From an uncultured beta proteobacterium (GTDB lineage: Bacteria; Pseudomonadota; Gammaproteobacteria; Burkholderiales; Burkholderiaceae_C): DNA of 64,000 nt. Shown piece by piece: positions 41,987-59,645 of the stretch (its first letter is position 1; every line of letters begins with the position of its first letter). The position numbers and the translations under genes are program-made. Under the pieces are notes generated by a model, which saw only the letters and a program-made list of their open reading frames with translations, was not told the origin of the DNA and made no database searches. The stretch spans positions 1 to 64,000 of the forward strand of contig CAIRBF010000226.1 in assembly GCA_903876715.1 (NCBI GenBank), written 5' to 3'.

Positions 41987-43978
41987 ATGCCATCCGCCCG
42001 ACCGAGCATTCCGGGGCTCCACGGCTGGTGCGTCGGGTTGCTCTTGCTGGCGCTGACCATCGGCGCCGCGCTCGGGCTCGGCGGGTGCACCGGCCGGACC
42101 GACAGCGCCCCCACGGTGCCTGGCATCGTTGTCGAGCAGGGTTGGTGGATAGACCGCAGCGGCCGGGCCGAGCTCCCCGACGTCCAGCAGGTCACCGACT
42201 GGACGCCGTTCTCGGGCTTGACGACCTTCGGCTTCGGCCCGGAGCCGGTCTGGTTCAGGCTCAGGCTCGAGGCTGCGAGCGAGCAGGCGCCCAGGCTGTG
42301 GATCCTGCGGGTGCTTCCCGCCTATCTGGACGAACTGACCTTCCATGACCCCGCGGCGGGACGCGTCTTGCGTGCCGGTCGGTCGGTACGCCCCGTGGGG
42401 GAGATGGTCTCGTCGATCAATCCCTCTTTTCCGCTGCCGGCGATGTCTCAGGGCCGCGACATCTACGTCCGGCTGAACTCCGCCACGACGCGGCTCGTGC
42501 TCATCGACGTCCTGCCATATGGGCAGGCCGCCTACCTCAACCGCTTGCAGGAGTGGCTGTTTGCCGCCCTGATCGCGCTGTCCGCCATCTCGGTGCTCTG
42601 GGCGCTGACCGAATGGGTGATCTACCGGGAGAGCGTCGTCGGCTTGTTTGCGATCAAGCAGTCCATCGCGACCGTCTGGGGGCTGCTGGCCGCGGGCTTC
42701 GCCCGCATCCTGGTCGGGCAGGAACTGCCGGCCGGCGCGCTGACCGCGGCGCAGTCGACGCTCCTGCCGCTGACGGTCGCCACCGGCATCGCCTTCGTCG
42801 CTGCGCTGATGAACAGCTACAGGCCGCCCCGGCTCTGGACCCGACTGCTCTTCGGCCTGGTCGCCGGCTTCACGCTGCTGCCCCTGCTGCAGTTCGCCGG
42901 CCTGACGCGAGAAGCCCGGGTGATCGCGAACGTCGGCCTGCCCCTGGTGTTCCTGTGCCTGTTCATGACCCTGGCCAGCGTGGCTCGCAGGCACAGCGAC
43001 CAACCCGTGCCGCTGTCCCTGCTGTTCGTCTACCTCTGCATCTACAGCCTGCTGCTGTCGGTCCCGGCGCTGATCAATCTCGGCAGCCTGGACGGCCTCG
43101 TGGCAGCGACGAGGCCCGAACAGCCGCTGGGCGTGGGTCGGCCGGCCGCGGCCACTTCCCCCTGGGAGGTCCTCGCGGTGTACGCCTCCCTCGTCAGCCT
43201 GATGCTCGACGGCTTCGTGATGCGGATCCTGCTGATGCGTCGGGCGTACGTGCAGCGACAGGCCCAGCGGGCCACCGAGCTCGAACTGCAACGCAGCGAG
43301 GAGGAGTCGAAAGCCCGGCGCCAGCTCAGCGAGGAGCAGAGCCGGCTTTTCGCGATGCTCGCGCACGAGATGAAGACCCCGCTCGCCACGCTGCGCATGT
43401 GGGTCCATGCCGGCGCGGCCGGACGCCCGGCCATGGAGCGCGCGATCTCTGAGATGACCCTGATCATCGAGCGCTGCGTGCACACCGGACAACTCGCCGA
43501 AAAGGGCTTGCAGCCCATCGCCCAAGCGGGCGACGCGCTTTTGCAGGCCAGAGCCGGCATCGAGACCTCGCGCGACCCCGACCGCTTCGAACTGCGGGGG
43601 CCCGACGGCGCGGCGCCGATCCTGGCGGACATGCAGATGCTGTCGATCGTGCTCGTCAACCTGTTCGACAACGCCGCGAAGTACAGCGCGCCACAGAGCC
43701 CGATCCGGGTGCTCGTGCAGGCGCAGGCACGCGACGGGCACCCGGGCTGGTGCTGGCAGATCAGCAATGTCACGGGCCCGGCGGGCATGCCCGATCCCGC
43801 GAGGTTGTTCGAGAAGTACTACCGAAGCCCGGGTGCGCGACACCAGTCGGGGTCGGGACTGGGCCTGTTCCTGGTGCGCGGTCTTCTCGACCTGATGGGC
43901 GGGACGGTCCAGTTCCAAGCGCAGGACGGGTGGGCCGTCTTCGACGTCTGGCTCCCGGCGACGCCCGTAGAACGTTAG
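41987..43978 (+). CDS. 7TMR-DISM-type sensor histidine kinase
   Basis: 663 aa: extracytoplasmic DISMED2-like N-terminal region, multiple TM segments, H-box RLFAMLAHEMKTPLATLRMWVHAG, N-box VNLFDNAAKYS, G-box SGSGLGLFLVRGLLDLMGG. Confidence 0.92.
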   Translation: MPSARPSIPGLHGWCVGLLLLALTIGAALGLGGCTGRTDSAPTVPGIVVEQGWWIDRSGRAELPDVQQVTDWTPFSGLTTFGFGPEPVWFRLRLEAASEQAPRLWILRVLPAYLDELTFHDPAAGRVLRAGRSVRPVGEMVSSINPSFPLPAMSQGRDIYVRLNSATTRLVLIDVLPYGQAAYLNRLQEWLFAALIALSAISVLWALTEWVIYRESVVGLFAIKQSIATVWGLLAAGFARILVGQELPAGALTAAQSTLLPLTVATGIAFVAALMNSYRPPRLWTRLLFGLVAGFTLLPLLQFAGLTREARVIANVGLPLVFLCLFMTLASVARRHSDQPVPLSLLFVYLCIYSLLLSVPALINLGSLDGLVAATRPEQPLGVGRPAAATSPWEVLAVYASLVSLMLDGFVMRILLMRRAYVQRQAQRATELELQRSEEESKARRQLSEEQSRLFAMLAHEMKTPLATLRMWVHAGAAGRPAMERAISEMTLIIERCVHTGQLAEKGLQPIAQAGDALLQARAGIETSRDPDRFELRGPDGAAPILADMQMLSIVLVNLFDNAAKYSAPQSPIRVLVQAQARDGHPGWCWQISNVTGPAGMPDPARLFEKYYRSPGARHQSGSGLGLFLVRGLLDLMGGTVQFQAQDGWAVFDVWLPATPVER

Positions 43979-44049
43979 AACTTGTTGGCTATTGATCGAC
44001 GTTCACCGCACACTCGTGTCTGTGTGCGAGGCTGTCGCGCCGCTGTTCC

Positions 44050-44745
44050 ATGCAGAAGTTCGCACTCAAGATCCTGGTCGTCGAAGACAACGATGCGCTG
44101 CGCGAGGCCACCCTCGCGTTTCTGCAGCGTCATGGCCACTACGTGCGTGGCGCATCATCGGCTGAGGAGGTCCACGACGTCGAGGGCGGATTCGTCCCCG
44201 ACCTCTACATCATCGACCTCATCCTGCCCGCCGAGGACGGCGTGAGCCTGACGAGACGGCTGCGCGCGGCGCATCCGAGCGTGGGCATCATCATCACGAC
44301 CGCCCTGTCGCGGATCGGCGACAAGGTGCTCGGTTACCGCAGCGGCGCCGACCTGTACCTCACCAAGCCACTCGACCCGGAGGAACTGATCGCCAGCCTC
44401 GAATCGCTGGCCAGCCGGCTGCGCAACACGCCCAGCGCGTCGGACGCGCTGACGCTCAAGGTGTCGAGCATGAGGCTCAGCGGGCCGGGCGGCGAGGTCC
44501 CGGTCAGCGCCAGCGAGGCAACGGTGCTCAGCGCCTTCGCGCGGGCGCCTGGACGCTCGCTCGAGCGCTGGCAACTCGTCGAGGTCATCGGCGGCGAGGG
44601 CCAGAACCAGCCATCGGCGGCCACCCTGGAAATGCGCATCACGCGCTTGCGCAAGAAGCTCACCGCGATCGGCGCGGAGCCCCCCGGCATCAAGGCGGTC
44701 CACAAGGTCGGCTACACCTTGTGCACCCCGTTGCTGCTCACCTGA
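44050..44745 (+). CDS. OmpR-family response regulator (receiver + winged helix)
   Basis: 231 aa: KILVVEDNDALREATLAFLQRHGH...DLYIIDLILPAEDGVSLTRRLR...LTKPLDPEEL; C-terminal ...LEMRITRLRKKL...IKAVHKVGYTL. Confidence 0.94.
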   Translation: MQKFALKILVVEDNDALREATLAFLQRHGHYVRGASSAEEVHDVEGGFVPDLYIIDLILPAEDGVSLTRRLRAAHPSVGIIITTALSRIGDKVLGYRSGADLYLTKPLDPEELIASLESLASRLRNTPSASDALTLKVSSMRLSGPGGEVPVSASEATVLSAFARAPGRSLERWQLVEVIGGEGQNQPSAATLEMRITRLRKKLTAIGAEPPGIKAVHKVGYTLCTPLLLT

Positions 44746-45404: not shown

Positions 45405-46733
45405 ATGCCCGCCCCGTCCCCCCAGCGCCCGAACTTCGTCTTCATCGTCGCCGACGACCTCGGTTATGCCGACCTCGGCTGCTACGACGGCCGGCCGGCC
45501 GAGTTCGGCCCGGTCTCGCCGCACATCGACGCGCTGGCAGAAGGGGGGCTGCGCTTCACCGAGGGCTACTCGAACGCGCCGGTGTGCTCCCCCACGCGCT
45601 TCGCGCTGATGACCGGGCGCTACCAGTACCGCCTGCGCGGCGCGCTCGACGAGCCGATGAGCAGCCGCACGCGCGACAGCGCCGTGCTCGGCCTGCCGCC
45701 CTCGCACCCGACGCTGCCCTCGCTGCTGCGCGCCGCCGGCTACCGCACGGCGCTGGTGGGCAAGTGGCACCTGGGCTACCCGCCACACTTCAGCCCGCTG
45801 CGCTCGGGTTACGAGGAGTTCTTCGGCCCGATGTCGGGCGGGGTCGACTACTTCAGCCACCGCACCACCAGCGGACACCACGACCTGTGGCTCGGGGAGC
45901 AGGACCACGCTGCCGACGGCTACCTCACCGACCTGATCTCCGACCGCGCCGTCGACTACCTGGAGCGTACCGCCCGCGCCAGCGCGCCCTTCCTGCTGAG
46001 CCTGCACTACACCGCCCCGCACTGGCCCTGGGAAACCCGCGACGACGCGCACCTCAGCGAGGAGGTGCGCTCCAACCTCTTCCATGTCCACGGCGGCAGC
46101 ATCCAGACCTACCGGCGCATGATCCACCACATGGACGAGGGTATCGGCCGGGTCGTGCAGACGCTGCGGCGCCTGGGTGCGCTCGAAAACACGCTGCTGG
46201 TCTTCACCAGCGACAACGGCGGCGAGCGTTATTCCGACAACTGGCCGCTGGTGGGCGGCAAGATGGACCTCACCGAAGGTGGCATCCGCGTGCCCAGGAT
46301 CGCGCACTGGCCGGCGGTGATCCAGCCCGGCAAATCGAGTGCCCAGCACTGCCTGACGATGGACTGGACGGCCACGATGCTCGACGCCGCGGGCGTGACC
46401 GCGGACCCGGAGCATCCGCTGGACGGCGTGTCGCTCCTGCCGCTGCTGCACGGCGGCCCGGCCTTCGAGCGCGCGATGTACTGGCGCATGAACCACCGCG
46501 GTCAGCGCGCGCTGCGCCGCGGGCGCTGGAAGTACCTGCAGGTGGACGGCCACGACTACCTGTTCGACATCGACGCCGACGCGCGCGAGCGCGCCAACCG
46601 AGCGCCGCGGGAGCCCGGGCGGCTGGCGGCCATGCGCGAGGATTGGCTGCGCTGGAACGAGAGCATGCTGCCCATCCCCCCTGACGCTACGGTCAGCCTG
46701 GGCTACGGCGCCAAGGACATGCCGCAGCGCTGA
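45405..46733 (+). CDS. Sulfatase (arylsulfatase family, Cys-type)
   Basis: RPNFVFIVADDLGYADLGCYDG...SNAPVCSPTRFALMTGRYQYRL (C-x-P-x-R formylglycine motif), LVGKWHLGYP, FTSDNGGERYSDNWPLVGGK. Start chosen at MPAPSPQRPNFVF because GGAG lies just upstream. Confidence 0.93.
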   Translation: MPAPSPQRPNFVFIVADDLGYADLGCYDGRPAEFGPVSPHIDALAEGGLRFTEGYSNAPVCSPTRFALMTGRYQYRLRGALDEPMSSRTRDSAVLGLPPSHPTLPSLLRAAGYRTALVGKWHLGYPPHFSPLRSGYEEFFGPMSGGVDYFSHRTTSGHHDLWLGEQDHAADGYLTDLISDRAVDYLERTARASAPFLLSLHYTAPHWPWETRDDAHLSEEVRSNLFHVHGGSIQTYRRMIHHMDEGIGRVVQTLRRLGALENTLLVFTSDNGGERYSDNWPLVGGKMDLTEGGIRVPRIAHWPAVIQPGKSSAQHCLTMDWTATMLDAAGVTADPEHPLDGVSLLPLLHGGPAFERAMYWRMNHRGQRALRRGRWKYLQVDGHDYLFDIDADARERANRAPREPGRLAAMREDWLRWNESMLPIPPDATVSLGYGAKDMPQR

Positions 46734-46796
46734 GGGCCGGCGGCCCGGAATTCCACCCCTGCCGAGGAACGACACCCGAAGCGCCAGATATCCAGC

Positions 46797-46820
46797 CCCT
46801 CTTCCCTCGCGGGAGAGGGG
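46797..46820. terminator. GC-rich hairpin (terminator- or REP-like) after the sulfatase gene
   Basis: CCCCTCTTCCC-TCGC-GGGAGAGGGG: near-perfect inverted repeat in the sulfatase-atzF intergenic region, with no obvious U-tract. Confidence 0.35.
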
Positions 46821-46915
46821 AGCCGAACCCGCGCTCCGCGCACATGGGTTCCGAGGCTTCAGTCTGCGGCGTCAGCGGCGCTGCATGGGCCTCTCCTCCA
46901 ACACCACGGCCTGAA

Positions 46916-46933
46916 CGCACCGATTCGGTGCAT
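46916..46933. promoter_or_regulatory. NtrC-like enhancer box
   Basis: CGCACCGATTCGGTGCAT: GCACC-N5-GGTGC dyad matching the general NtrC box layout. Confidence 0.45.
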
Positions 46934-46940
46934 CTAACGC

Positions 46941-46956
46941 TGGCACGCTTTGTGCT
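46941..46956 (+). promoter_or_regulatory. Sigma-54 (RpoN) -24/-12 promoter candidate for the atzF-led cluster
   Basis: TGGCACGCTTTGTGCT: GG and GC separated by 10 bp, one clear mismatch from TGGCACG-N4-TTGCW; 34 bp upstream of the atzF start codon. Confidence 0.6.
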
Positions 46957-46964
46957 GAACTGTC

Positions 46965-46974
46965 TGGTATACCA
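46965..46974. promoter_or_regulatory. TGGTATACCA palindrome, candidate GntR/FCD-type operator
   Basis: Perfect 10-bp palindrome 16 bp upstream of the atzF ATG; resembles operators of GntR (FadR/VanR-like) regulators, and such a regulator is encoded at 58920. Confidence 0.4.
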
Positions 46975-46989
46975 AGCAGCGCACCAAAG

Positions 46990-48882
46990 ATGCCCTCTTC
47001 TCTTCTCGACCTCACCGCGCCTGTCGGCTCCCTGCCCACCGTGGGCGGCTGGCTCCAAAGAGTGGCCGCCGGGGAGGATGCGGTGCAGATGGCGCAGGCA
47101 GCCCGCACGCGGGCGCTGGCCGACGCGCAGACCGACTCTGGACGCCCAGTGTGGATCCACGTTTGCGACGACGCCACCTGGGCGGCGCAACTCGCGCTGC
47201 TCGCCACCCGTCTGGCGGCCTGCGGCTCGCGCGCCGAGGCCCTTCGGCGGCACCCGCTGCTGGGGGTGCCCTTCGCAGCCAAGGACAACATCGACATCGC
47301 CGGCTCGCCCACCACGGCGGCCTGCCCGGCGCACACGCACGTGCCAGCCTCCAGCGCCACCGTGGTGCAACGCCTGCTGGACGCCGGCGCGCTGTGGCTG
47401 GGCAAGACCAACCTCGACCAGTTCGCCACCGGGCTGGTGGGCACACGGTCACCCTATGGCCGCCCGACCAGCATCGCCGACCCTGAGCGCATCAGCGGCG
47501 GGTCGAGTTCAGGCTCCGCGTTGGCCGTGGCGCGTGGGCTCGTGGCCTTCGCACTCGGCACCGACACCGCCGGCTCCGGCCGCATACCGGCCGGCTTCAA
47601 CGGCCTGGTGGGCCTGAAGCCCACGCCCGGGCGCGTGTCCGCCGCCGGCGTACTGCCAGCCTGCCGCACCCTGGACTGCGTTTCCATCTTCGCGCACGAG
47701 GTCGCCGACGCAGCCCACGTGCTGGCTGTCGTCGAGGGGCCGGACGCGGCCGACCCCTACAGCCACTTCGAGCCCAGCCCGGCCCATTGGCCCGAGCGGC
47801 TGCGCCTGGGCGTGCCTTCCCGCCCGCGCTGGTTCGGCGACGCCGGCTACCCGCCCGCCTGGGCAGATGCCCGCGCCCGCGCCGCAGCCTTGGGGCACGA
47901 GATCGTGGAGTTGGACTTCGCCGTGTTGGACGAGGTCGCGGCGCTGCTGTACGAGGGCCCGTGGGTGGCCGAGCGGCACACCGTGCTGCAGCCGCTGATG
48001 GACAGCCGGCCCGAGGCCCTGGATCCGACCGTGCGGCGCGTCGTCGCGCGTGCCGCCGGCTTCAGCGCCACCGACGCCTTCCGCGCGCAGTACCGCCTGC
48101 GCGCCCTGCAACAGCAGGCGCAGGCTTCGTGGCAGCGGGTCGATGCCCTGCTCGTGCCCACGGCACCCGGCCATCCGCGCTTTTCCGAGGTCGATGCCGA
48201 TCCGGTGGGCGCCAACGCGGCCATGGGCGCCTACACGAACTTCGTCAACCTCCTGGGGTGGTGCGCGTTGGCCGTGCCCGCCGGGCGTACCGACGGCGGG
48301 CTGCCTTTCGGCGTGACCTTCATCGGCCCGGCGGGCTGTGACGCGCAGCTCGCCGAACTGGGCCAGGTCTGGACGGCTGCCCCGCCAACTGCGGCGTGGC
48401 TGCGCGCTCCCGCCAGCGGACCCACGCTGCCGATCGCGGTGGTCGGCGCCCACTTGTCGGGCCTGCCGCTGAACGGCCAGCTCACCGAACGCCGCGCGAC
48501 ACTGCTGCGGCGCACTCGCTCCGCTGCCTGCTACCGCCTGCACGAGCTGCCCGGCACCGTACCGCCCAAGCCCGGCCTGCAGCGTGTGCCCCAGGGTGGG
48601 GCATCCATCGAGCTCGAGGTCTGGTCCATGCCGCAGGCCGAGCTCGGGTCCTTCCTCGCGCTGATCCCGGCACCGCTGGGGCTGGGCAGCATCGAGCTCG
48701 AGGACGGCAGCACCGTCCACGGCTTCCTGTGCGAGGCGCACGCCCTGGCAGGCGCACGCGACATCACCGCCCACGGCGGCTGGCGAGCCTGGCTGGCCGC
48801 GCGCAACGCACCCCAGCGACCGCACGCCGACGAAGGCACGAATCCTGCACGGTTCCCCGCAGGAAACCACCCCGCTCCATGA
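46990..48882 (+). CDS. atzF: Allophanate hydrolase
   Basis: 630 aa: amidase signature GVPFAAKDNIDIAG, ISGGSSSGSALAVARG, GTDTAGSGRIPAGFNGLVGLKPT; AtzF-type C-terminal domain LPIAVVGAHLSGLPLNGQL...VHGFLCEAHAL...DITAHGGWRAWL. Confidence 0.94.
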   Translation: MPSSLLDLTAPVGSLPTVGGWLQRVAAGEDAVQMAQAARTRALADAQTDSGRPVWIHVCDDATWAAQLALLATRLAACGSRAEALRRHPLLGVPFAAKDNIDIAGSPTTAACPAHTHVPASSATVVQRLLDAGALWLGKTNLDQFATGLVGTRSPYGRPTSIADPERISGGSSSGSALAVARGLVAFALGTDTAGSGRIPAGFNGLVGLKPTPGRVSAAGVLPACRTLDCVSIFAHEVADAAHVLAVVEGPDAADPYSHFEPSPAHWPERLRLGVPSRPRWFGDAGYPPAWADARARAAALGHEIVELDFAVLDEVAALLYEGPWVAERHTVLQPLMDSRPEALDPTVRRVVARAAGFSATDAFRAQYRLRALQQQAQASWQRVDALLVPTAPGHPRFSEVDADPVGANAAMGAYTNFVNLLGWCALAVPAGRTDGGLPFGVTFIGPAGCDAQLAELGQVWTAAPPTAAWLRAPASGPTLPIAVVGAHLSGLPLNGQLTERRATLLRRTRSAACYRLHELPGTVPPKPGLQRVPQGGASIELEVWSMPQAELGSFLALIPAPLGLGSIELEDGSTVHGFLCEAHALAGARDITAHGGWRAWLAARNAPQRPHADEGTNPARFPAGNHPAP

Positions 48883-49106
48883 CCACACCAGGACTGACGA
48901 TGGACCAGGACGCCTACGCCGACACCGCCGCGCAATGGGTGGGCCTGCCCCTGGCGGCCGATCACCGCCCGGGCGTGATGCGCTACCTGCAATTGGCGCA
49001 GGGCATGGCGGCGCGCGTGATGGACTTCCCGCTCGGTCGAGACGACGAGCCGGCCACCGTCTTCCGCCCGGTGGCGCCCGAGGACCTGCCGGAGGCCAGG
49101 ACGTGA
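48879..49106 (+). CDS. atzG: AtzG-like (DUF4089) small subunit of an AtzE-type amidohydrolase
   Basis: 75 aa: MTTPGLTMDQDAYADTAAQWVGLPLAADHRPGVMRYLQLAQGMAARVMDFPLGRDDEPATVFRPVAPEDLPEART. Starts in an ATGA overlap with atzF and ends in a GTGA overlap with atzE. Confidence 0.85.
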   Translation: MTTPGLTMDQDAYADTAAQWVGLPLAADHRPGVMRYLQLAQGMAARVMDFPLGRDDEPATVFRPVAPEDLPEART

Positions 49107-50449
49107 GCGCAGTCGCTTCCGTCCGGCTCAGCCTGGACCGCATCGCCGCCACCGATGCGCGCGTGAACGCGTTCACGGCCGTGCTGGCGGAGCGCGCGCT
49201 GGCGCGCGCGCAGGCCCTCGACCGACAGGACCAGGAGGGCCCGCTGGCCGGGCTGCCCTTCGCGGTCAAGAACCTGTACGACATCGCTGGCCTGACGACG
49301 CTTGCAGGCTCGAAGATCGAGCGCGACGCGCCGCCGGCGAGACAGGACGCGCTGCTGGTGCGCCGCCTCGAGGCTGCCGGCGCGGTGCTCGTGGGTGCGC
49401 TCAACATGGACGAATACGCCTACGGCTTCACGACCGAGAACACGCACCACGGCGCCACGCGCAATCCGCACGACCTCGGCCGCATCAGCGGCGGCTCCTC
49501 GGGCGGTTCGGGCGCGGCGGTCGCTGCCGGCCAGGTGCCGCTGACGCTGGGCTCGGACACGAACGGCTCGATCCGCGTGCCCGCGGCGCTGTGCGGCGTG
49601 TTCGGCCTCAAACCCACCTTCGGCCGCCTGCCGCGCACCGGCACCTACCCCTTCGTGGCGAGCCTGGACCACCTCGGCCCGATGGCGCGCAGTGTCACGC
49701 TGCTGGCGCAGGCCTACGATGCCATGCAGGGCCACGACGCCAGCGACCCGGCCTGCATGCCCCGGCCGGCGGAGCCCACGGCCGGGACGCTGGACCGCGG
49801 AAGCGAAGGCCTGCGCCTGGGCGTGCTGCAGGGCTGGTTCACTGCCCAGGCCGGGGACCCGGCACGTGCCGCGGTGCAGCGCGTGGCCGACGCGCTGCAT
49901 GCGAGCCAGCGCGTGAGCTGGCCCGAGGTCGACCGCGCCCGGGCCGCCGCCTTCCTGATCACCAACGCCGAGGGTGCGGCGCTGCACCTGCGCGACCTGA
50001 AGACACGCGCGCAGGACTTCGAGCCGCTGTCACGCGACCGCTTCCTGGCCGGCGCGCTGCTGCCTGCGGCCTGGATCGCACAGGCCCAGCGCCTGCGGCG
50101 CTGGTTCGCGCGCGAAGTCGCCGCAACCTTTCGCGACGTCGACCTCGTGCTCGCGCCGGCCACGCCCTGCAGCGCGCCGCCGATCGGCACCGAGTGGCTG
50201 GAGATCGCGGGTCAGCGCCTGCCGGCGCGCGCGAGCCTGGGGCTGCTGACGCAACCCGTGTCATGCATCGGGCTGCCGGTGGTCACGGTGCCGGTGTGGG
50301 GCTGCGACCCCGCGGCACCGCACCTGCCCTTGGGCGTGCAACTGATCGCTGCGCCCTGGCGCGAGGACCTTTGCCTGCGCGCGGCGCGCGCGCTGGAGGC
50401 CGCGGGCGTGGCGCGCTCGCCGGTGGCGACGTTGGACCCACGGAACTGA
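49103..50449 (+). CDS. atzE: AtzE-family amidohydrolase (1-carboxybiuret hydrolase-like catalytic subunit)
   Basis: GTG start in GTGA overlap; amidase signature LPFAVKNLYDIAGLTTLAGS, RISGGSSGGSGAAVAAGQVPLTLGSDTNGSIRVPAALCGVFGLKPTFGRL. Confidence 0.9.
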   Translation: MSAVASVRLSLDRIAATDARVNAFTAVLAERALARAQALDRQDQEGPLAGLPFAVKNLYDIAGLTTLAGSKIERDAPPARQDALLVRRLEAAGAVLVGALNMDEYAYGFTTENTHHGATRNPHDLGRISGGSSGGSGAAVAAGQVPLTLGSDTNGSIRVPAALCGVFGLKPTFGRLPRTGTYPFVASLDHLGPMARSVTLLAQAYDAMQGHDASDPACMPRPAEPTAGTLDRGSEGLRLGVLQGWFTAQAGDPARAAVQRVADALHASQRVSWPEVDRARAAAFLITNAEGAALHLRDLKTRAQDFEPLSRDRFLAGALLPAAWIAQAQRLRRWFAREVAATFRDVDLVLAPATPCSAPPIGTEWLEIAGQRLPARASLGLLTQPVSCIGLPVVTVPVWGCDPAAPHLPLGVQLIAAPWREDLCLRAARALEAAGVARSPVATLDPRN

Positions 50450-50455
50450 ACCAGG

Positions 50456-50842
50456 ATGAACACCACCGACATCAACCTGCCCGAGGTGCTGGCCGAGGTC
50501 CAGGCCGTCTTCGCCCGCTACGAGGATGCCCTGGTGAACAACCGGCTGGACGTGCTCGACGAGCTGTTCTGGACCAGCCCGATCACGGTGCGCTACGGCG
50601 CCGGCGAGAACCTGTACGGCATCGAGGAGATCCGCGCCTTCCGGCAGGCCAGGCCCTCGGCAGGCCTGGCACGCGAACTCGCGCGCACCGTGATCACCAC
50701 CTATGGGCACGACTTCGCCACCGCGATGACCGAATTCCGGCGCACCGGCAGCACGCGCATCGGGCGTCAGAGCCAGACCTGGGCACGCCGGCCCGAAGGC
50801 TGGCGCGTCGTCGCTGCGCACGTCAGCGTGATCGACGGCTGA
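50456..50842 (+). CDS. AtzH-like / HpxZ-family (DUF3225, NTF2-fold) protein
   Basis: 128 aa: [67 protein letters not shown]...[19 protein letters not shown]. Confidence 0.87.
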
Positions 50843-50939: not shown

Positions 50940-52076
50940 ATGAACCACTCCAGCCGCCTCACCCCGAGCGACCTGATGCGCCGCCGCCTGCTCACTGCTG
51001 GCGCCCTGAGCGGTGCCTCGCTTGCCCTGCCCGGCGCATTGCGCCACGCGCTGGCGCAGACGCCCATCACCGTGGGGATGATCTACGTCGGCCCGCGCGA
51101 CGACTTCGGCTACAACCAGGCGCACGCCGAGGCCGCCGCGCAACTGAAGAAGATCGCCGGCGTCAAGGTCGTCGAGGAAGAGAACGTCGCCGAGACGCAG
51201 GCGGTGCAGAAGAGCATGCAGGGCATGATCTCGCAGGACGGCGCGACGCTGCTCTTCCCAACCTCCTTCGGCTACTTCGACCCGCACATGCTGGCCGTGG
51301 CCGGCAAGAACGAGAAGATCCGCTTCGCCCACTGCGGCGGCCTGTGGACCCAGGGCAAGCACCCGGCCAACACCGGCAGCTTCTTCGGCTACATCGACGA
51401 AGCCCAGTACCTCAACGGCGTGATCGCCGGCCACATGAGCAAGAGCAAGAAGCTCGGCTTCGTCGCCGCCAAGCCCATCCCGCAGGTGCTGCGCAACATC
51501 AACGCCTTCACGATGGGCGCGCGCTCGGTCGACCCGAAGATCACGACCACCGTCATCTTCACCGGCGACTGGTCGATGCCGGTCAAGGAGGCCGAGGCCA
51601 CGAACAGCCTCGCCGACCAGGGCGTGGACGTGTTCACGATGCACGTCGACGGGCCCAAGGTGGTGGTCGAGACCGCGGCCAAGCGCGGCAAGATGGTCTG
51701 CGGCTACCACGCCAGCCAGGCCAAGCTCGCGCCCAACGCCTACCTCACGGGCGCCGAGTGGAACTGGCTGACCGCCTACACCACCATCCTCGAGGCCGCA
51801 CGCACCGGCAAGCCGCACCCGAACTTCGTGCGCGGCGGCCTGAAGGCGGGCTTCGTCAAATCCTCGCCCTACGGCGCCATGGTCGGTGAGGGCGCGCGCA
51901 AGAACGCCGAGGCGGTGCGCGCCAAGATGATGGCAGGCACCTTCGACATCTTCGCCGGTGAGCTCAAGGACAACACCGGCAAGGTCGTCATCGCCAAGGG
52001 CACCACGCTGAAGCAGACCGACGTGGTGCTGGAGTCGATGAACTACCTGGTCGAAGGCGTCATCGGCAAGGTCTGA
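50940..52076 (+). CDS. BMP-family ABC transporter substrate-binding protein
   Basis: 378 aa: Tat/Sec-like N-terminus (MRRRLLTAGALSGASLALPGAL), ITVGMIYVGPRDDFGYNQAHAEAA...VVEEENVAETQAVQKSMQGMISQDGATLLFPTSFGY. Confidence 0.92.
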   Translation: MNHSSRLTPSDLMRRRLLTAGALSGASLALPGALRHALAQTPITVGMIYVGPRDDFGYNQAHAEAAAQLKKIAGVKVVEEENVAETQAVQKSMQGMISQDGATLLFPTSFGYFDPHMLAVAGKNEKIRFAHCGGLWTQGKHPANTGSFFGYIDEAQYLNGVIAGHMSKSKKLGFVAAKPIPQVLRNINAFTMGARSVDPKITTTVIFTGDWSMPVKEAEATNSLADQGVDVFTMHVDGPKVVVETAAKRGKMVCGYHASQAKLAPNAYLTGAEWNWLTAYTTILEAARTGKPHPNFVRGGLKAGFVKSSPYGAMVGEGARKNAEAVRAKMMAGTFDIFAGELKDNTGKVVIAKGTTLKQTDVVLESMNYLVEGVIGKV

Positions 52077-52147
52077 CCCGGCCCTGCAGTCCCCTCCCCG
52101 CCCGGGCCTGACGGCCCGGGCGGGTGCCTGCACCACCCCCTCACGTC

Positions 52148-53206
52148 ATGAAATCCGCCGCGGAATCCCTGTTGCTGCCCATCCTCGCCCTGCTGGGCGG
52201 GCTGGCGCTGTTCGGCGTGTTCGTCTGGTTCGACGGCCACAGTCCGCTGCAGGCCTGGGGCTTGCTGTTCCGCGGCGCCTTCGGCGACGCCTTCTCGCTG
52301 CAGAACACGCTGCAGCGGGCCGCGCCGCTGATGCTGACCGCCCTGTGCGTGGCCTTGCCGGCGCGCGCCGGGCTCACCGTGATCGGCGGCGAGGGCGCGC
52401 TGGTCGTCGGCGGGCTGGCCTGCGCCGCGCTGCCTTACGCCTTCTCCCCACCCGACGGGGCGGCCGGCACCGCCCTGCTGCTCGCGGCCGCGGCCGCGGC
52501 CGGCGCGGCGTGGATCGCGCTCGCTGGCTGGCTGCGCCAGTGGCGCGGCGTGAACGAGACCATCTCCAGCCTGCTGCTGGGCTACATCGCGATCTCGCTG
52601 TTCAAGCACATCGTCGAAGGCCCGCTGCGCGACCCGGCGAGCCTGAACAAGCCTTCGACGCTGCCCCTGGGCGAATCGCTGCGCATCGGCACCATCGGCC
52701 CCTGGGACGTGCACTGGGGCCTGGCCTTCGGTGTCGTGGCCTGCGTCGCCGCGGCCATCTGGCTGTCGGCCACCACGCACGGTTTTGCGACCCGCGTGGT
52801 TGGCGGCAACCTGCGCGCCGCCCTCGGCGTGGGCCTGCCCGCGCACCGCCTCATCGTCACCGCCTGCGCGCTCGGCGGCGCGGCGGCCGGCCTGGCCGGC
52901 GGCATCGAGGTCGCGGCCGTGCACACGGCGGCCAATGCCTCGCTCATCGTCGGCCTGGGCTACACCGGCATCCTGGTGAGCTTCGTCGCGCGCCACCACC
53001 CGCTGGCCATCGTGCCGGTGGCCATCCTCTTCGGCGGCTTCCTCGCCGCCGGCAGTCTGCTGCAACGCCGCATGGGCCTGCCCGATGCCTCGGTGCAGGT
53101 GCTGATGGGCTTCAGCTTCGTGATCATCCTGGCCAGCGAGGCCTGGCGCGGCCGCCTGGGTGAGCTCTTCGTGCTGCGCCGCACCGCCCAGGGAGCCACG
53201 CCGTGA
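52148..53206 (+). CDS. ABC transporter permease (BMP/nucleoside-type system, permease 1)
   Basis: Hydrophobic; ...LLFRGAFGDAFSLQNTLQRAAPLMLTALCVALPARAGLTVIGGEGALVVGGL...GVNETISSLLLGYIAISLFKHIVEGPLRDP. Confidence 0.9.
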   Translation: MKSAAESLLLPILALLGGLALFGVFVWFDGHSPLQAWGLLFRGAFGDAFSLQNTLQRAAPLMLTALCVALPARAGLTVIGGEGALVVGGLACAALPYAFSPPDGAAGTALLLAAAAAAGAAWIALAGWLRQWRGVNETISSLLLGYIAISLFKHIVEGPLRDPASLNKPSTLPLGESLRIGTIGPWDVHWGLAFGVVACVAAAIWLSATTHGFATRVVGGNLRAALGVGLPAHRLIVTACALGGAAAGLAGGIEVAAVHTAANASLIVGLGYTGILVSFVARHHPLAIVPVAILFGGFLAAGSLLQRRMGLPDASVQVLMGFSFVIILASEAWRGRLGELFVLRRTAQGATP

Positions 53207-54132
53207 CCGACTCCGTCGTCTTCGACGTGCTGCTGGCCGTGCTCGGCGGCGCGATCCGCGTGGGCACGCCCTTTCTCTTCGTCAGCCTGGGCGAGTGCCT
53301 GACCGAGAAGGCCGGGCGCATCAACCTCGGCCTCGAGGGCGTGCTCGTGTTCTCGGCCATGGCCGGCTTCGGCGGCGCCTACCTCAGCGGGCAGTGGTGG
53401 GTGGGCGTGCTGCTGGCCGCCGCCAGCGGCGCGCTGGTGGCGCTGCTGCACGGCCTGGTCAGCAGCCTGCCGCGCGTCAACGACATCGCGGCGGGCATCG
53501 CGATCATGCTGTTCGGCGCCGGCCTGGCCTTCTACCTGGGCAAGCCGCTGATCCAGCCGCAGGCGCCGCAGATCCCTTCCTTGCCGCTGGGCCTGTGGCT
53601 GGGCGCCGCCCCCGGCAGCCCGGCGCAGGCGGCGCTGGCGGTGAACGTGCTGTTCCCGCTGGGCGTGGCGCTGGCCCTGCTGCTGACTTGGGCCCTGGCC
53701 CACACCGGCTGGGGACTGAAGGTGCGCATGGTCGGCGACTCGGCCGACGCGGCACGCGCGCTCGGCACCTCGGTGGCGGGCGTACGCATCGCCGCCACTG
53801 GCCTCGGCGGCCTCATCGCCGGGCTGGGTGGTGCCTCGCTGTCGCTGTACTACCCCGGCAGCTGGAACGAGGGCCTGTCCAGCGGCCAGGGCCTGATCGC
53901 GGTGGCGCTCGTCATCTTCGCGCGCTGGCACCCGGTGCGCTGCCTGTGGGCCGCCTTGCTGTTCGGCGGCGCCGGGGCGCTCGGGCCGGCGCTGCAGTCC
54001 ATCGGCGTGGGTGGCTACACCTACCTGTTCAATGCCGTGCCCTATGTGCTGACGCTCGCGATCCTGGTGTGGACCTGCTCGCCCCGCCGCAGCCTGCAGG
54101 GCGCACCGATGGAGCTGGGTGTCACGCGCTGA
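53203..54132 (+). CDS. ABC transporter permease (BMP/nucleoside-type system, permease 2)
   Basis: 309 aa; GTG start overlapping the upstream TGA; GGAIRVGTPFLFVSLGECLTEKAGRINLGLEGVLVFSAMAGFGGAYLSG. Confidence 0.9.
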   Translation: MTDSVVFDVLLAVLGGAIRVGTPFLFVSLGECLTEKAGRINLGLEGVLVFSAMAGFGGAYLSGQWWVGVLLAAASGALVALLHGLVSSLPRVNDIAAGIAIMLFGAGLAFYLGKPLIQPQAPQIPSLPLGLWLGAAPGSPAQAALAVNVLFPLGVALALLLTWALAHTGWGLKVRMVGDSADAARALGTSVAGVRIAATGLGGLIAGLGGASLSLYYPGSWNEGLSSGQGLIAVALVIFARWHPVRCLWAALLFGGAGALGPALQSIGVGGYTYLFNAVPYVLTLAILVWTCSPRRSLQGAPMELGVTR

Positions 54133-54179: not shown

Positions 54180-55202
54180 ATGAACGGACTCGGTGGACTC
54201 AACAAGTCGCCCCACGGCGTGGTCGTGGGCCTGGTGCAGCTGCAGCTGCCGGTGGTGGAAACCCCCGAGCAGCTGGCGGCACAGGCACAGCACATTGCCT
54301 GGATGGTGGGCAAGGCGCGGCGCAACCTCGGCACGATGGACCTGGTCGTCTTTCCCGAGTACGCGCTTCACGGCCTGTCGATGAGCACCGCGCCGGAGCT
54401 GATGTGCACGCTCGACGGCCCCGAAGTCGCGCTGTTCCGCCAGGCCTGCATCGAGCACCGCATCTGGGGCTGCTTCTCCATTATGGAGGCCAACCCCCAC
54501 GGCAACCCCTACAACACCGGCCTCATCATCGACGACCGCGGCGAGTTGCGCTTGTACTACCGCAAGCTCCACCCCTGGGTGCCGGTGGAGGCCTGGGAGC
54601 CCGGCAACATGGGCGTGCCGGTGTGCGAGGGCCCCAACGGCAGCAAGATCGGGCTGATCATCTGCCACGACGGCATGTTCCCGGAAATGGCGCGCGAGGC
54701 CGCCTACAAGGGCGCCGAGATGATCCTGCGCACCGCCGGCTATACCGCGCCAATCCGCCACGCGTGGCGCATCACCAACCAGGCCAACGCCTTCCAGAAC
54801 CTGGCGCAGACGGCCAGTGTCTGCCTGTGCGGCAGCGACGGCAGCTTCGACTCCATGGGCGAGGGCATGTTCTGTGACTTCGACGGGACCGTGATGGTGC
54901 AGGGTGGCAACCGCGCGGACGAGATCATCACCGCCGAGCTGCGCCCCGACCTGGTGCGCGAGGCACGCGCCGGCTGGGGCGTGGAGAACAACCCCTACCA
55001 GCTCTGGCACCGCGGCTACGTCGCCGTGCAGGGCGGCGCCCAGGACTGCCCCTACACCTTCATGCAGGACATGGTGGCCGGTCGCTACCGCCTGCCCTGG
55101 GACGCGAGCATCCAGGTGCGCGACGGCACCCCCTGCGGCTTTGCCGCGCCGACGCGGCGCTACCGCGGCGCCGAGCCCAACCCGCTGGAGACCGCGCCAT
55201 GA
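54180..55202 (+). CDS. AmiF-like formamidase (nitrilase superfamily)
   Basis: 340 aa: [26 protein letters not shown]...[12 protein letters not shown] (Glu)...[59 protein letters not shown] (Lys, Cys); co-linear with the AmiF family as I recall it. Confidence 0.87.
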
Positions 55203-55900
55203 GCACGATCGCGAGCACCCCCTACCGCTGGCCCTTCGACGCCGACCTGCGCCCGTCCAACACGGCGCTGGTCGTCATCGACATGCAGACCGACTTCTGC
55301 GGCATCGGCGGCTACGTCGACAAGATGGGCTACGACCTGTCGCTGACGCGCGCCCCGATCGGGCCGATCGCCCGCGTGCTGGCGGCGATGCGCGAGCGCG
55401 GCTTCCCCATCATCCACACCCGAGAGGGCCACCGCCCCGACCTGTCGGACCTGCCCGCCAACAAGCGCTGGCGCTCGCAGCAGATCGGCGCGGGCATCGG
55501 CGACCCGGGCCCCTGCGGTCGCATCCTGGTGCGCGGCGAACCGGGGTGGGAGATCATCCCCGAGCTCGCGCCGCTGCCGGGAGAGGTCGTGATCGACAAG
55601 CCCGGCAAGGGCAGCTTCTGCGCCACCGACCTGGAGCTGGTCCTGCGCACGCGCGGCATCCGCAACCTGGTGCTGACCGGCATCACCACCGACGTGTGCG
55701 TGCACACGACGATGCGCGAGGCCAACGACCGCGGCTTCGAGTGCGTGATCCTGTCGGACTGCACGGGCGCCACCGACCTGGGCAACCACGAGGCGGCGCT
55801 GAAGATGGTGACGATGCAGGGGGGCGTCTTCGGCGCCGTCGCTGACTCGGCGACATTGATCGCAGGTTTGGCGGCGCTGCCGGTGGTGACGCAGGCATGA
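55199..55900 (+). CDS. biuH: Isochorismatase-family cysteine hydrolase, biuret amidohydrolase (BiuH)-like
   Basis: 233 aa: [102 protein letters not shown]...[17 protein letters not shown]...[23 protein letters not shown] overlap with the upstream gene. Confidence 0.87.
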
Positions 55901-55958: not shown

Positions 55959-57689
<1,731 letters not shown>

Positions 57690-57931: not shown

Positions 57932-58618
57932 ATGTCCGACATCCCCATCCCCGCCCGCCCCTACCCCTACGCGCTGCCGCCCGGGCGCTGCGCGCTGGTG
58001 CTGATCGACCTGCAGCGCGACTTCGTCGAGCCCGGCGGCTTCGGTGCCGCGCTCGGCAACGACGTCTCGCTGCTCGGCGCCGCCGTCGGGCCGGCGCGCG
58101 CGCTGCTGCAAGCCTGGCGCGCGCGCGGCTGGCCCGTGATCCACACCCGCGAGTCCCACGCCCCCGACCTGTCAGACTGCCCGCCGGCCAAGCGCGAGCG
58201 CGGCCAGCCCGCGCTGCGCATCGGCGACCCGGGGCCGATGGGGCGCCTGCTCGTGCGCGGCGAGCCCGGCTGCGAGATCGTGCCCGCGCTCGCGCCGCTG
58301 CCCGGCGAGACCGTGATCGACAAGCCCGGCAAGGGCGCCTTCCACGCCACGCCGCTGCAGGCGGTGCTGCAGGCCCAGGGCATCACACACCTGGTCTTCG
58401 CCGGCGTGACCACCGAGGTCTGCGTGCAGACGACGATGCGCGAGGCCAACGACCGCGGCTACGAGTGCCTGCTCGTCGAGGAGGCCACGGCGAGCTACTT
58501 CCCCGAGTTCAAGGCCGCGACGATCGCGATGATCGTCGCCCAGGGCGGCATCGTCGGCTGGGCTGCGGGGCTGAACGCGGTGCTGGGGGCCCTGGAGGGC
58601 AGCAAGTCGGCAGACTGA
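57932..58618 (+). CDS. Second isochorismatase-family cysteine hydrolase (BiuH/TrtA-like paralog)
   Basis: 228 aa: [27 protein letters not shown]...[76 protein letters not shown]...[34 protein letters not shown]. Confidence 0.88.
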
Positions 58619-58919: not shown

Positions 58920-59645
58920 ATGACCGCCCCGCCCACCACCGCCGCGCCCGGGCACACGCCCGATGCCGGCGCCCGCGGTGCGCTGGCCGACCAGGTCTAC
59001 GCCGAGCTCAAGGCGCGGATGCACGACTTCCGCCTCGTGCCCGGGGACCGTTTCTCCGAGCCCGAGGTCGGGCGCCAGCTCGGCGTGAGCCGCACGCCGG
59101 TGCGCGAGGCCCTGCTGCGTCTGCGCAACGAGGGGCTGCTGGAGGTGGAGTCCAAGACCGGCTGGTTCGTACGGCCGATCGATTTCGCGCGCCTGGACCA
59201 GCTCTACGACCTGCGCGTGATCCTGGAGCGTGCCAGCATCGAGCGCATCGTCGCGATGCCGGCCCTGCCGGCCGGGCTGGAGGCGCTGAAGACGATCTGG
59301 CTGGTGCCGGCGGCCGAGCGCCTGGTCGACGGCCGCGCTGTCGGCCAGCTCGACGAGGCCTTCCACGCCACCCTGGTGCGCGCCACCGGCAACGACGAGG
59401 CGGCACGCGTGCACCACGACGTGACCGAGCGCATCCGTATCGTGCGCCGGCTCGACTTCACCCGCGCCGACCGCATCGAGGCCACCTACACCGAACACGG
59501 CAAGATCCTGCGCCAGATCATCCAGCGCAAGGCCGAGTCGGCCCAGAGCCTGCTGCAGGCCCATATCGAGCAGAGCAAGGCCGAGGTGCGCAAGATCACG
59601 CTGGCCACGCTGCACGAGGCGCGGCAGCGGGCTCAGTCCGCGTAG
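58920..59645 (+). CDS. GntR-family (FCD-type) transcriptional regulator
   Basis: LADQVYAELKARMHDFRLVPGDRFSEPEVGRQLGVSRTPVREALLRLRNEGLLEVESKTGWFVRPIDFARLDQLYDLRVILERASIERIV: GntR HTH plus FCD-like effector domain. Confidence 0.92.
   Translation: MTAPPTTAAPGHTPDAGARGALADQVYAELKARMHDFRLVPGDRFSEPEVGRQLGVSRTPVREALLRLRNEGLLEVESKTGWFVRPIDFARLDQLYDLRVILERASIERIVAMPALPAGLEALKTIWLVPAAERLVDGRAVGQLDEAFHATLVRATGNDEAARVHHDVTERIRIVRRLDFTRADRIEATYTEHGKILRQIIQRKAESAQSLLQAHIEQSKAEVRKITLATLHEARQRAQSA

What the first reader, a model, noticed from the sequence alone, without database searches (positions are those of the whole stretch)
46916..46989. Compact control region upstream of atzF: NtrC-like box, sigma-54 promoter and GntR-like operator within ~60 bp
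Seen: CGCACCGATTCGGTGCAT (46916-46933), TGGCACGCTTTGTGCT with correct GG-N10-GC spacing (46941-46956), TGGTATACCA (46965-46974). Together they suggest dual input: general N limitation (NtrC/RpoN) and a pathway ligand through the GntR regulator at 58920. The NtrC-like box abuts the promoter, closer than typical enhancers, so it may act atypically.
Basis: partly seen in the sequence, partly recalled or inferred. Interest (0 to 1): 0.6.

Follow-up and report, generated by a model that had tools for sequence, protein, structure and literature searches.

The report
Dual-input promoter of biuret operon
This is an ordinary but well-conserved bacterial switch: a nitrogen-starvation (sigma-54) promoter whose start point is covered by a binding site for a GntR-family repressor, so that genes for eating biuret-type fertiliser impurities are probably made only when nitrogen is scarce and the substrate is present.

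Summary
All three elements are at the stated coordinates. Two form a real, conserved module: the sigma-54 promoter TGGCACG-N4-GTGCT (46941-46956) followed by the FadR-type GntR operator TGGTATACCA (46965-46974), which straddles the predicted start site (about 46967). A sigma-54 site 23-33 bp before a TNGTATACNA-type operator was found upstream of atzF in 51 of 105 non-duplicate related loci. The combined pattern, searched blind in 399 Burkholderiales genomes, gave 10 hits, 7 directly before atzF. The module co-occurs with orthologues of the window's GntR gene (58920-59645; Fisher P = 5e-9). The operon encodes allophanate, biuret and triuret-type hydrolases with a transporter. The NtrC-like box (11/12 consensus) is unlikely to be chance (P about 0.0006), and such boxes are enriched before these promoters; but relatives carry them 104-188 bp upstream. 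Only here does the box abut the promoter, and the closest relative lacks it. Mechanism (repressor blocks the start site, NtrC activates) is inferred; HutC at Pseudomonas hutU is a tested parallel. New member of a known kind; modest interest.

The parts
46916..46932 (+). NtrC-type box CGCACC-N5-GGTGCA (11/12 of TGCACC-N5-GGTGCA), about -51 to -35 from the predicted start site; 8 bases from the -24 element
   Evidence: Only site with >=11/12 in the 64-kb window; P=0.0006 in the intergenic region. Position not conserved; absent in closest relative L012.
46941..46956 (+). sigma-54 (RpoN) promoter TGGCACG-N4-GTGCT, -24/-12 elements
   Evidence: GG, CA, TG invariant in 29 genus-level relatives; fixed 23-33 bp spacing to the operator in 51 loci.
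46967..46967 (+). predicted transcription start (12 bases after the C of the -12 GC); 5' leader of about 23 nt
   Evidence: Inference from sigma-54 promoter geometry; no transcript data.
46965..46974 (.). core operator TGGTATACCA (FadR-type GntR consensus TKGT/ACMA) straddling the start site
   Evidence: Perfect copy unique in the genome; GTATAC invariant in 29/29 genus relatives; co-occurs with the GntR gene.
46979..46985 (+). conserved right outer arm GYGCACC (here GCGCACC), fixed 4 bases after the core operator
   Evidence: G.GCAC invariant in 29/29; spacing to the operator fixed while spacing to the start codon varies 2-18 nt.
46955..46960 (+). degenerate left outer arm (consensus GTGYAC, here CTGAAC), overlaps the end of the -12 element
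   Evidence: In-register dyad symmetry above shuffles; in loci outside the genus also above cross-pairing (P about 0.009).
46990..48882 (+). atzF, allophanate hydrolase
   Evidence: TIGR02713 742 bits, above cut-off.
48879..49106 (+). atzG-like small ORF (75 aa), ATGA overlap with the end of atzF
   Evidence: Reading frame; identity inferred from position and sequence, no family search run.
48935..50449 (+). atzE, 1-carboxybiuret-type amidohydrolase (domain from about 49097)
   Evidence: NF006631/TIGR02715 above cut-off.
50456..50842 (+). atzH-like
   Evidence: PF11533 206 bits.
50940..54132 (+). BMP-type substrate-binding protein and two BPD_transp_2 permeases
   Evidence: Pfam.
54180..55202 (+). 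formamidase-like CN hydrolase
   Evidence: NF009803 551 bits.
55199..55900 (+). biuH, biuret amidohydrolase
   Evidence: NF050097 423.8 bits, cut-off 370; closest structure group 6azo, 6.9e-119.
55959..57689 (+). ABC transporter ATPase (double)
   Evidence: Pfam.
57932..58618 (+). second isochorismatase-fold hydrolase, trtA (triuret hydrolase)-like
   Evidence: Best solved structure 6xix, the TrtA entry, 7e-90 against 3e-65 for biuret hydrolase (entry identity from PMC7948467).
58920..59645 (+). gntR, FCD-domain GntR regulator, last gene of the cluster
   Evidence: PF00392 and PF07729.

Best explanation
The stretch 46916-46989 is the promoter of a biuret/triuret/allophanate nitrogen-scavenging operon. 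RNA polymerase with sigma-54 binds 46941-46956 and would start near 46967. The FCD-type GntR protein encoded by the last gene of the cluster binds a roughly 31-bp operator centred on TGGTATACCA, right over the start site. It thereby blocks open-complex formation until a pathway compound (biuret, triuret, allophanate or a relative) releases it. Opening also needs an enhancer-binding ATPase, most likely phosphorylated NtrC, so the operon behaves as an AND gate: nitrogen limitation and substrate. In this genome the only recognisable NtrC box lies unusually close, abutting the promoter. Shown here: the elements, their conservation, spacing and co-occurrence with the GntR gene. Inferred: protein binding, repression, ligand, start site and NtrC dependence.
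For: (1) Sigma-54 plus operator at 23-33 bp spacing in 51 of 105 non-duplicate loci across beta- and gammaproteobacteria. (2) Column conservation confined to promoter, operator and right arm in 29 genus-level relatives; the region upstream is unconserved. (3) Blind search for the combined pattern in 399 Burkholderiales genomes: 10 hits, against 1 for the reversed control; 7 lie directly before atzF. (4) Module and GntR orthologue co-occur: 21/5/6/43, Fisher P=5e-9; most exceptions are split or truncated clusters. (5) Two Rhizobacter clusters with the pathway split in two units carry a second copy of the module, spacing 26, before the BMP part. (6) RpoN and NtrC are encoded; NtrC-type boxes lie before 13 of 49 of these promoters against 1.4 expected. 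(7) glnK in the same genome has the same box type 57 bp before its sigma-54 site. (8) No sigma-70-like promoter in 46600-47100. (9) HutC in P. aeruginosa, another GntR repressor, protects a region overlapping the sigma-54 site at hutU (PMC12977541).
Against: No transcript, binding or mutant data. The NtrC box is not positionally conserved, and the closest relative (86% AtzF identity) has no box with even 9/12 matches. A B. cenocepacia ntrC mutant grew better, not worse, on biuret (PMC5491218), so NtrC dependence is not general. The -12 element is GTGCT rather than TTGCT. GntR proteins can also activate.
Confidence: 0.78

Rival explanations
1. The promoter and operator work as above, but the abutting NtrC-like box is not a functional enhancer: it is a chance or relic site, and activation uses another enhancer-binding protein or NtrC bound elsewhere or acting from solution.
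For: Position unique among 49 promoters; the closest relative lacks it; other boxes in relatives lie 104-188 bp upstream. The genome encodes several NtrC-like proteins.
Against: An 11/12 match in this 208-bp region is unlikely by chance (P=0.0006), and apart from it no site of 10/12 or better lies between 44739 and the promoter.
Confidence: 0.35
2. The inverted repeat at 46916-46932 is a second, low-affinity site for the GntR protein, which competes with NtrC or cooperates with the start-site operator, as HutC does at its NtrC-like Pntr sites.
For: HutC binds NtrC-like Pntr sequences as well as its own operator (PMC12977541); the conserved outer arm GYGCACC of this operator resembles half of the box.
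Against: HutC is of a different GntR subfamily; the box is present in one genome only, while the operator is conserved widely.
Confidence: 0.1
3. The GntR protein is an activator, or the operator is bound by another GntR regulator of the genome.
For: Some FCD regulators activate (general knowledge); the gene lies 12 kb downstream.
Against: Operator placement on the start site fits repression; strong co-occurrence with orthologues of this gene.
Confidence: 0.1
4. All three motifs are chance resemblances in a GC-rich genome.
For: The sigma-54 pattern alone is no commoner than its reversed control.
Against: Conservation, fixed spacing, blind enrichment before atzF and co-occurrence.
Confidence: 0.02

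Closest known systems
HutC (GntR family) at the sigma-54-dependent hutU promoter of Pseudomonas, with NtrC input
   Same: GntR-family repressor whose protected region overlaps a sigma-54 promoter of a nitrogen-yielding catabolic operon; NtrC input; ligand response (PMC12977541).
   Different: HutC belongs to the HutC subfamily with a TGTA-N2-TACA site; here an FCD (FadR-subfamily) protein, a TGGTATACCA site with GYGCAC flanks, and a biuret-type pathway.
NtrC regulon extension to atzF in Rhizobiales
   Same: NtrC-type control of allophanate hydrolase predicted by comparative genomics (PMC5343134).
   Different: Reported there for Rhizobiales; no GntR operator is mentioned in the passages read; in two Bradyrhizobium loci seen here a TTGTACACAA sequence lies 10 bp before the promoter instead.
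Triuret/biuret gene clusters of Herbaspirillum and nitrifiers (trtA, trtB, biuH, atzF, bmpA-nupABC, gntR)
   Same: Same enzyme and transporter set, with a gntR gene drawn in the synteny figure (PMC7948467, PMC12625717).
   Different: The passages found describe no promoter or operator; here atzG/atzE/atzH-like genes and a formamidase are also present.
atzDGEHF operon of Pseudomonas sp. ADP
   Same: AtzF, AtzE, AtzG, AtzH functions (PMC6219798 abstract).
   Different: No atzD in the cluster here; regulated there by the LysR protein AtzR (own knowledge).

Membership tests
sigma-54 promoter | GG-N10-GC core with TGGCAC / TGCW context | tested here: met
sigma-54 promoter | transcription start 11-13 bases after -12 and dependence on RpoN | not testable with these tools
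   RpoN is encoded in the genome; needs 5' RACE and a mutant
NtrC enhancer | TGCACC-N5-GGTGCA-type palindrome | tested here: met
   11/12 matches; same type at glnK in the same genome
NtrC enhancer | usual placement about 100-150 bp upstream of the start site | tested here: not met
   Box centre about 43 bp upstream of the predicted start; relatives 104-188 bp before the promoter element; usual distance from PMC5491218
NtrC enhancer | binding by phosphorylated NtrC | not testable with these tools
   NtrC is encoded
FadR-subfamily GntR operator | palindrome with TKGT/ACMA boxes | tested here: met
   TGGTATACCA; consensus from PMC4494728
FadR-subfamily GntR operator | cognate GntR gene with winged HTH and FCD domain in the same cluster | tested here: met
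HutC-like control of a sigma-54 promoter | regulator of the HutC subfamily | tested here: not met
   FCD domain found; HutC model only 24 bits against a cut-off of 220
HutC-like control of a sigma-54 promoter | operator overlapping the sigma-54 promoter or start region | tested here: met
   sequence geometry

The most novel reading that the evidence does not exclude
The GntR protein recognises a three-part operator (GTGYAC-N4-TGGTATACCA-N4-GYGCAC) and, in this genome, also the abutting NtrC-like repeat, so that repressor and NtrC compete for the enhancer itself and the switch integrates nitrogen state and substrate at one composite site.
Probability: 0.07. Interest if true: 0.5.

Novelty: new member of a known kind. 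Interest (0 to 1): 0.34.

Why it matters
It gives a concrete, testable regulon for the use of biuret and triuret, impurities of urea fertiliser. It predicts that their breakdown in many Burkholderiales and some gammaproteobacteria is shut off by ammonium and needs inducer. It also offers a natural case of an NtrC box far closer to a sigma-54 promoter than usual. As a kind of switch it is already known from hut genes.

Tried and rejected
Sigma-54 pattern counts alone gave no signal. The two other TNGTATACNA sites of the genome were inspected: C82 lies inside a coding ORF, C192 at the 5' side of a divergent gene pair, neither tied to this pathway. A sigma-70 promoter was sought and not found. 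The idea that GYGCACC serves translation rather than the operator was weighed: its distance to the operator is fixed, to the start codon variable. That the outer arms form a fully symmetric operator is only partly supported: the left arm is degenerate in the genus and the cross-pair control fails there. GntR wing sequence correlates with the type of outer arm, but this follows clades and is not independent. Three of the ten blind hits do not precede atzF: before an ABC-transporter gene (L132), inside a glycerol-kinase-like ORF (L135), and a place not examined further (L133). Literature searches for the operator sequences and for GntR control of biuret genes found no description; only open-licence papers are held.

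Full report
Observation. The three motifs are at the stated places. The operator core is unique as a perfect copy in the 5.58-Mb genome, and the NtrC-type box is the best of its kind in the window, with P about 0.0006 for its intergenic region. The sigma-54 sequence taken alone is no rarer than chance predicts, so it had to be tested by comparison.

Setting. atzF (46990) opens a cluster that reads atzF, an atzG-like small ORF, atzE, an AtzH-like gene, a BMP-type binding protein with two permeases, formamidase, biuret hydrolase BiuH, an ABC ATPase, a second hydrolase closest to triuret hydrolase TrtA, and a GntR/FCD regulator. Published clusters with trtA, biuH, atzF, bmpA-nupABC and gntR are the same kind (PMC7948467, PMC12625717). 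The genus holds MAGs named Rubrivivax, so the host is a Rubrivivax-like Burkholderiales bacterium.

Comparative test. AtzF relatives were fetched and the DNA before each gene examined. A sigma-54 site followed 23-33 bp later by a TNGTATACNA-type operator was found in 51 of 105 non-duplicate loci, from Rubrivivax-like species to Variovorax, Achromobacter, Lampropedia, Marinobacter, Alcanivorax, Buttiauxella and Pseudomonas. In 29 genus-level relatives the promoter bases and GTATAC are invariant or nearly so, while the sequence upstream of the promoter shows no conservation. The loci were selected by presence of both elements, so their own conservation is partly built in; the absence of conservation around them, the fixed spacing and the blind search below are not. 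The spacing puts the operator at or just after the predicted start (12 bases after the C of the -12 element; here 46967).

Unbiased test. The combined pattern was searched in 399 Burkholderiales genomes with no reference to atzF: 10 hits, 1 in the reversed control, and 7 of the 10 (the window's own included) lie directly before an atzF gene. Two Rhizobacter clusters in which the pathway is split carry a second copy of the module before the transporter part, again at 26 bp. Presence of the module goes with presence of an orthologue of the window's GntR gene (21 both, 5 gene only, 6 module only, 43 neither; Fisher P = 5e-9). Four of the five gene-only loci have the BMP genes upstream of atzF, so atzF is not first there. 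The fifth, L063, has an operator but no recognised promoter. Of the six module-only loci, L052, L104 and L115 are cut near their ends, and L066 has a weaker GntR hit. These loci share ancestry, so the P value overstates independence.

Outer arms. Four bases after the core operator the genus has an invariant G-N-GCAC (29/29, mostly GTGCACC; GCGCACC in the window at 46979-46985). It keeps a fixed distance to the operator while the distance to the start codon varies from 2 to 18 nt, so it probably belongs with the operator. A degenerate left partner overlaps the end of the promoter. In loci outside the genus the arms differ (GGATTCC, GGATGC, CACATGC) and left and right arms match each other in register better than cross-paired arms (P about 0.009); within the genus that control fails because the right arm does not vary. 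The operator is therefore probably about 31 bp.

NtrC. RpoN and NtrC are encoded. NtrC-type boxes (at least 10/12) lie within 250 bp before 13 of 49 of these promoters, against 1.4 in shuffles and 1 in the reversed-motif control. Twelve lie 104-188 bp before the promoter; the window's begins 25 bp before it and ends 8 bases from its edge. The glnK promoter of the same genome has the same box type 57 bp before its sigma-54 site. The closest relative L012 has a shorter intergenic region with no such box. So the box is probably of NtrC type, but its position is an oddity of this genome, possibly through a local deletion, and its function is open. A B. cenocepacia ntrC mutant grew better on biuret (PMC5491218), a warning against assuming NtrC dependence.

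Mechanism and precedent. The most likely working is an AND gate: NtrC (or another enhancer-binding protein) opens the sigma-54 complex under nitrogen limitation, and the GntR protein, sitting on the start site, prevents this until a pathway compound releases it. HutC at hutU is a tested parallel: a GntR-family repressor whose footprint overlaps the sigma-54 site of an NtrC-influenced operon, with further binding to NtrC-like Pntr sites (PMC12977541). Here the regulator is an FCD protein, so it works like HutC without belonging to that subfamily. No binding, start site, ligand or mutant phenotype has been shown.

Verdict. Real, conserved and correctly read in its main points; a new member of a known kind of switch, with two details worth a bench test: the extended operator and the promoter-proximal NtrC box.

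Noticed in passing
46979-46989: The atzF leader has no recognisable Shine-Dalgarno sequence; the conserved GYGCACC arm occupies that place in many relatives, 2-18 nt before the start codon.
   Followed up: partly
46795-46825: CCCCTCTTCCCTCGCGGGAGAGGGG-like palindrome between the sulfatase gene and the promoter, also in the closest relative; the perfect CCCCTCTCCC form occurs twice elsewhere in the genome.
   Followed up: partly
L045:17241 and L046:14628: Second copies of the sigma-54/operator module before the BMP transporter genes where the pathway is split into two units.
   Followed up: yes
L091:about 9813, L092:about 9736 and related Bradyrhizobium loci: In Bradyrhizobium atzF loci a TTGTACACAA or CTGTACACAA sequence begins 10 bp before the sigma-54 site instead of after it, with only a distant (26-28% identity) GntR hit; a different arrangement.
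   Followed up: no
L050, L051, L055, L058, L061, L075, L107, L112: GntR relatives with SRTPLR instead of SRTPVR in the recognition region belong to atzF loci without the promoter module; in L055 and L061 an operator-like site lies far upstream, near the BMP genes, without a good sigma-54 site.
   Followed up: partly
41987-44745: 7TMR-DISM histidine kinase with an OmpR-type response regulator upstream of the sulfatase gene, no evident tie to the operon.
   Followed up: no
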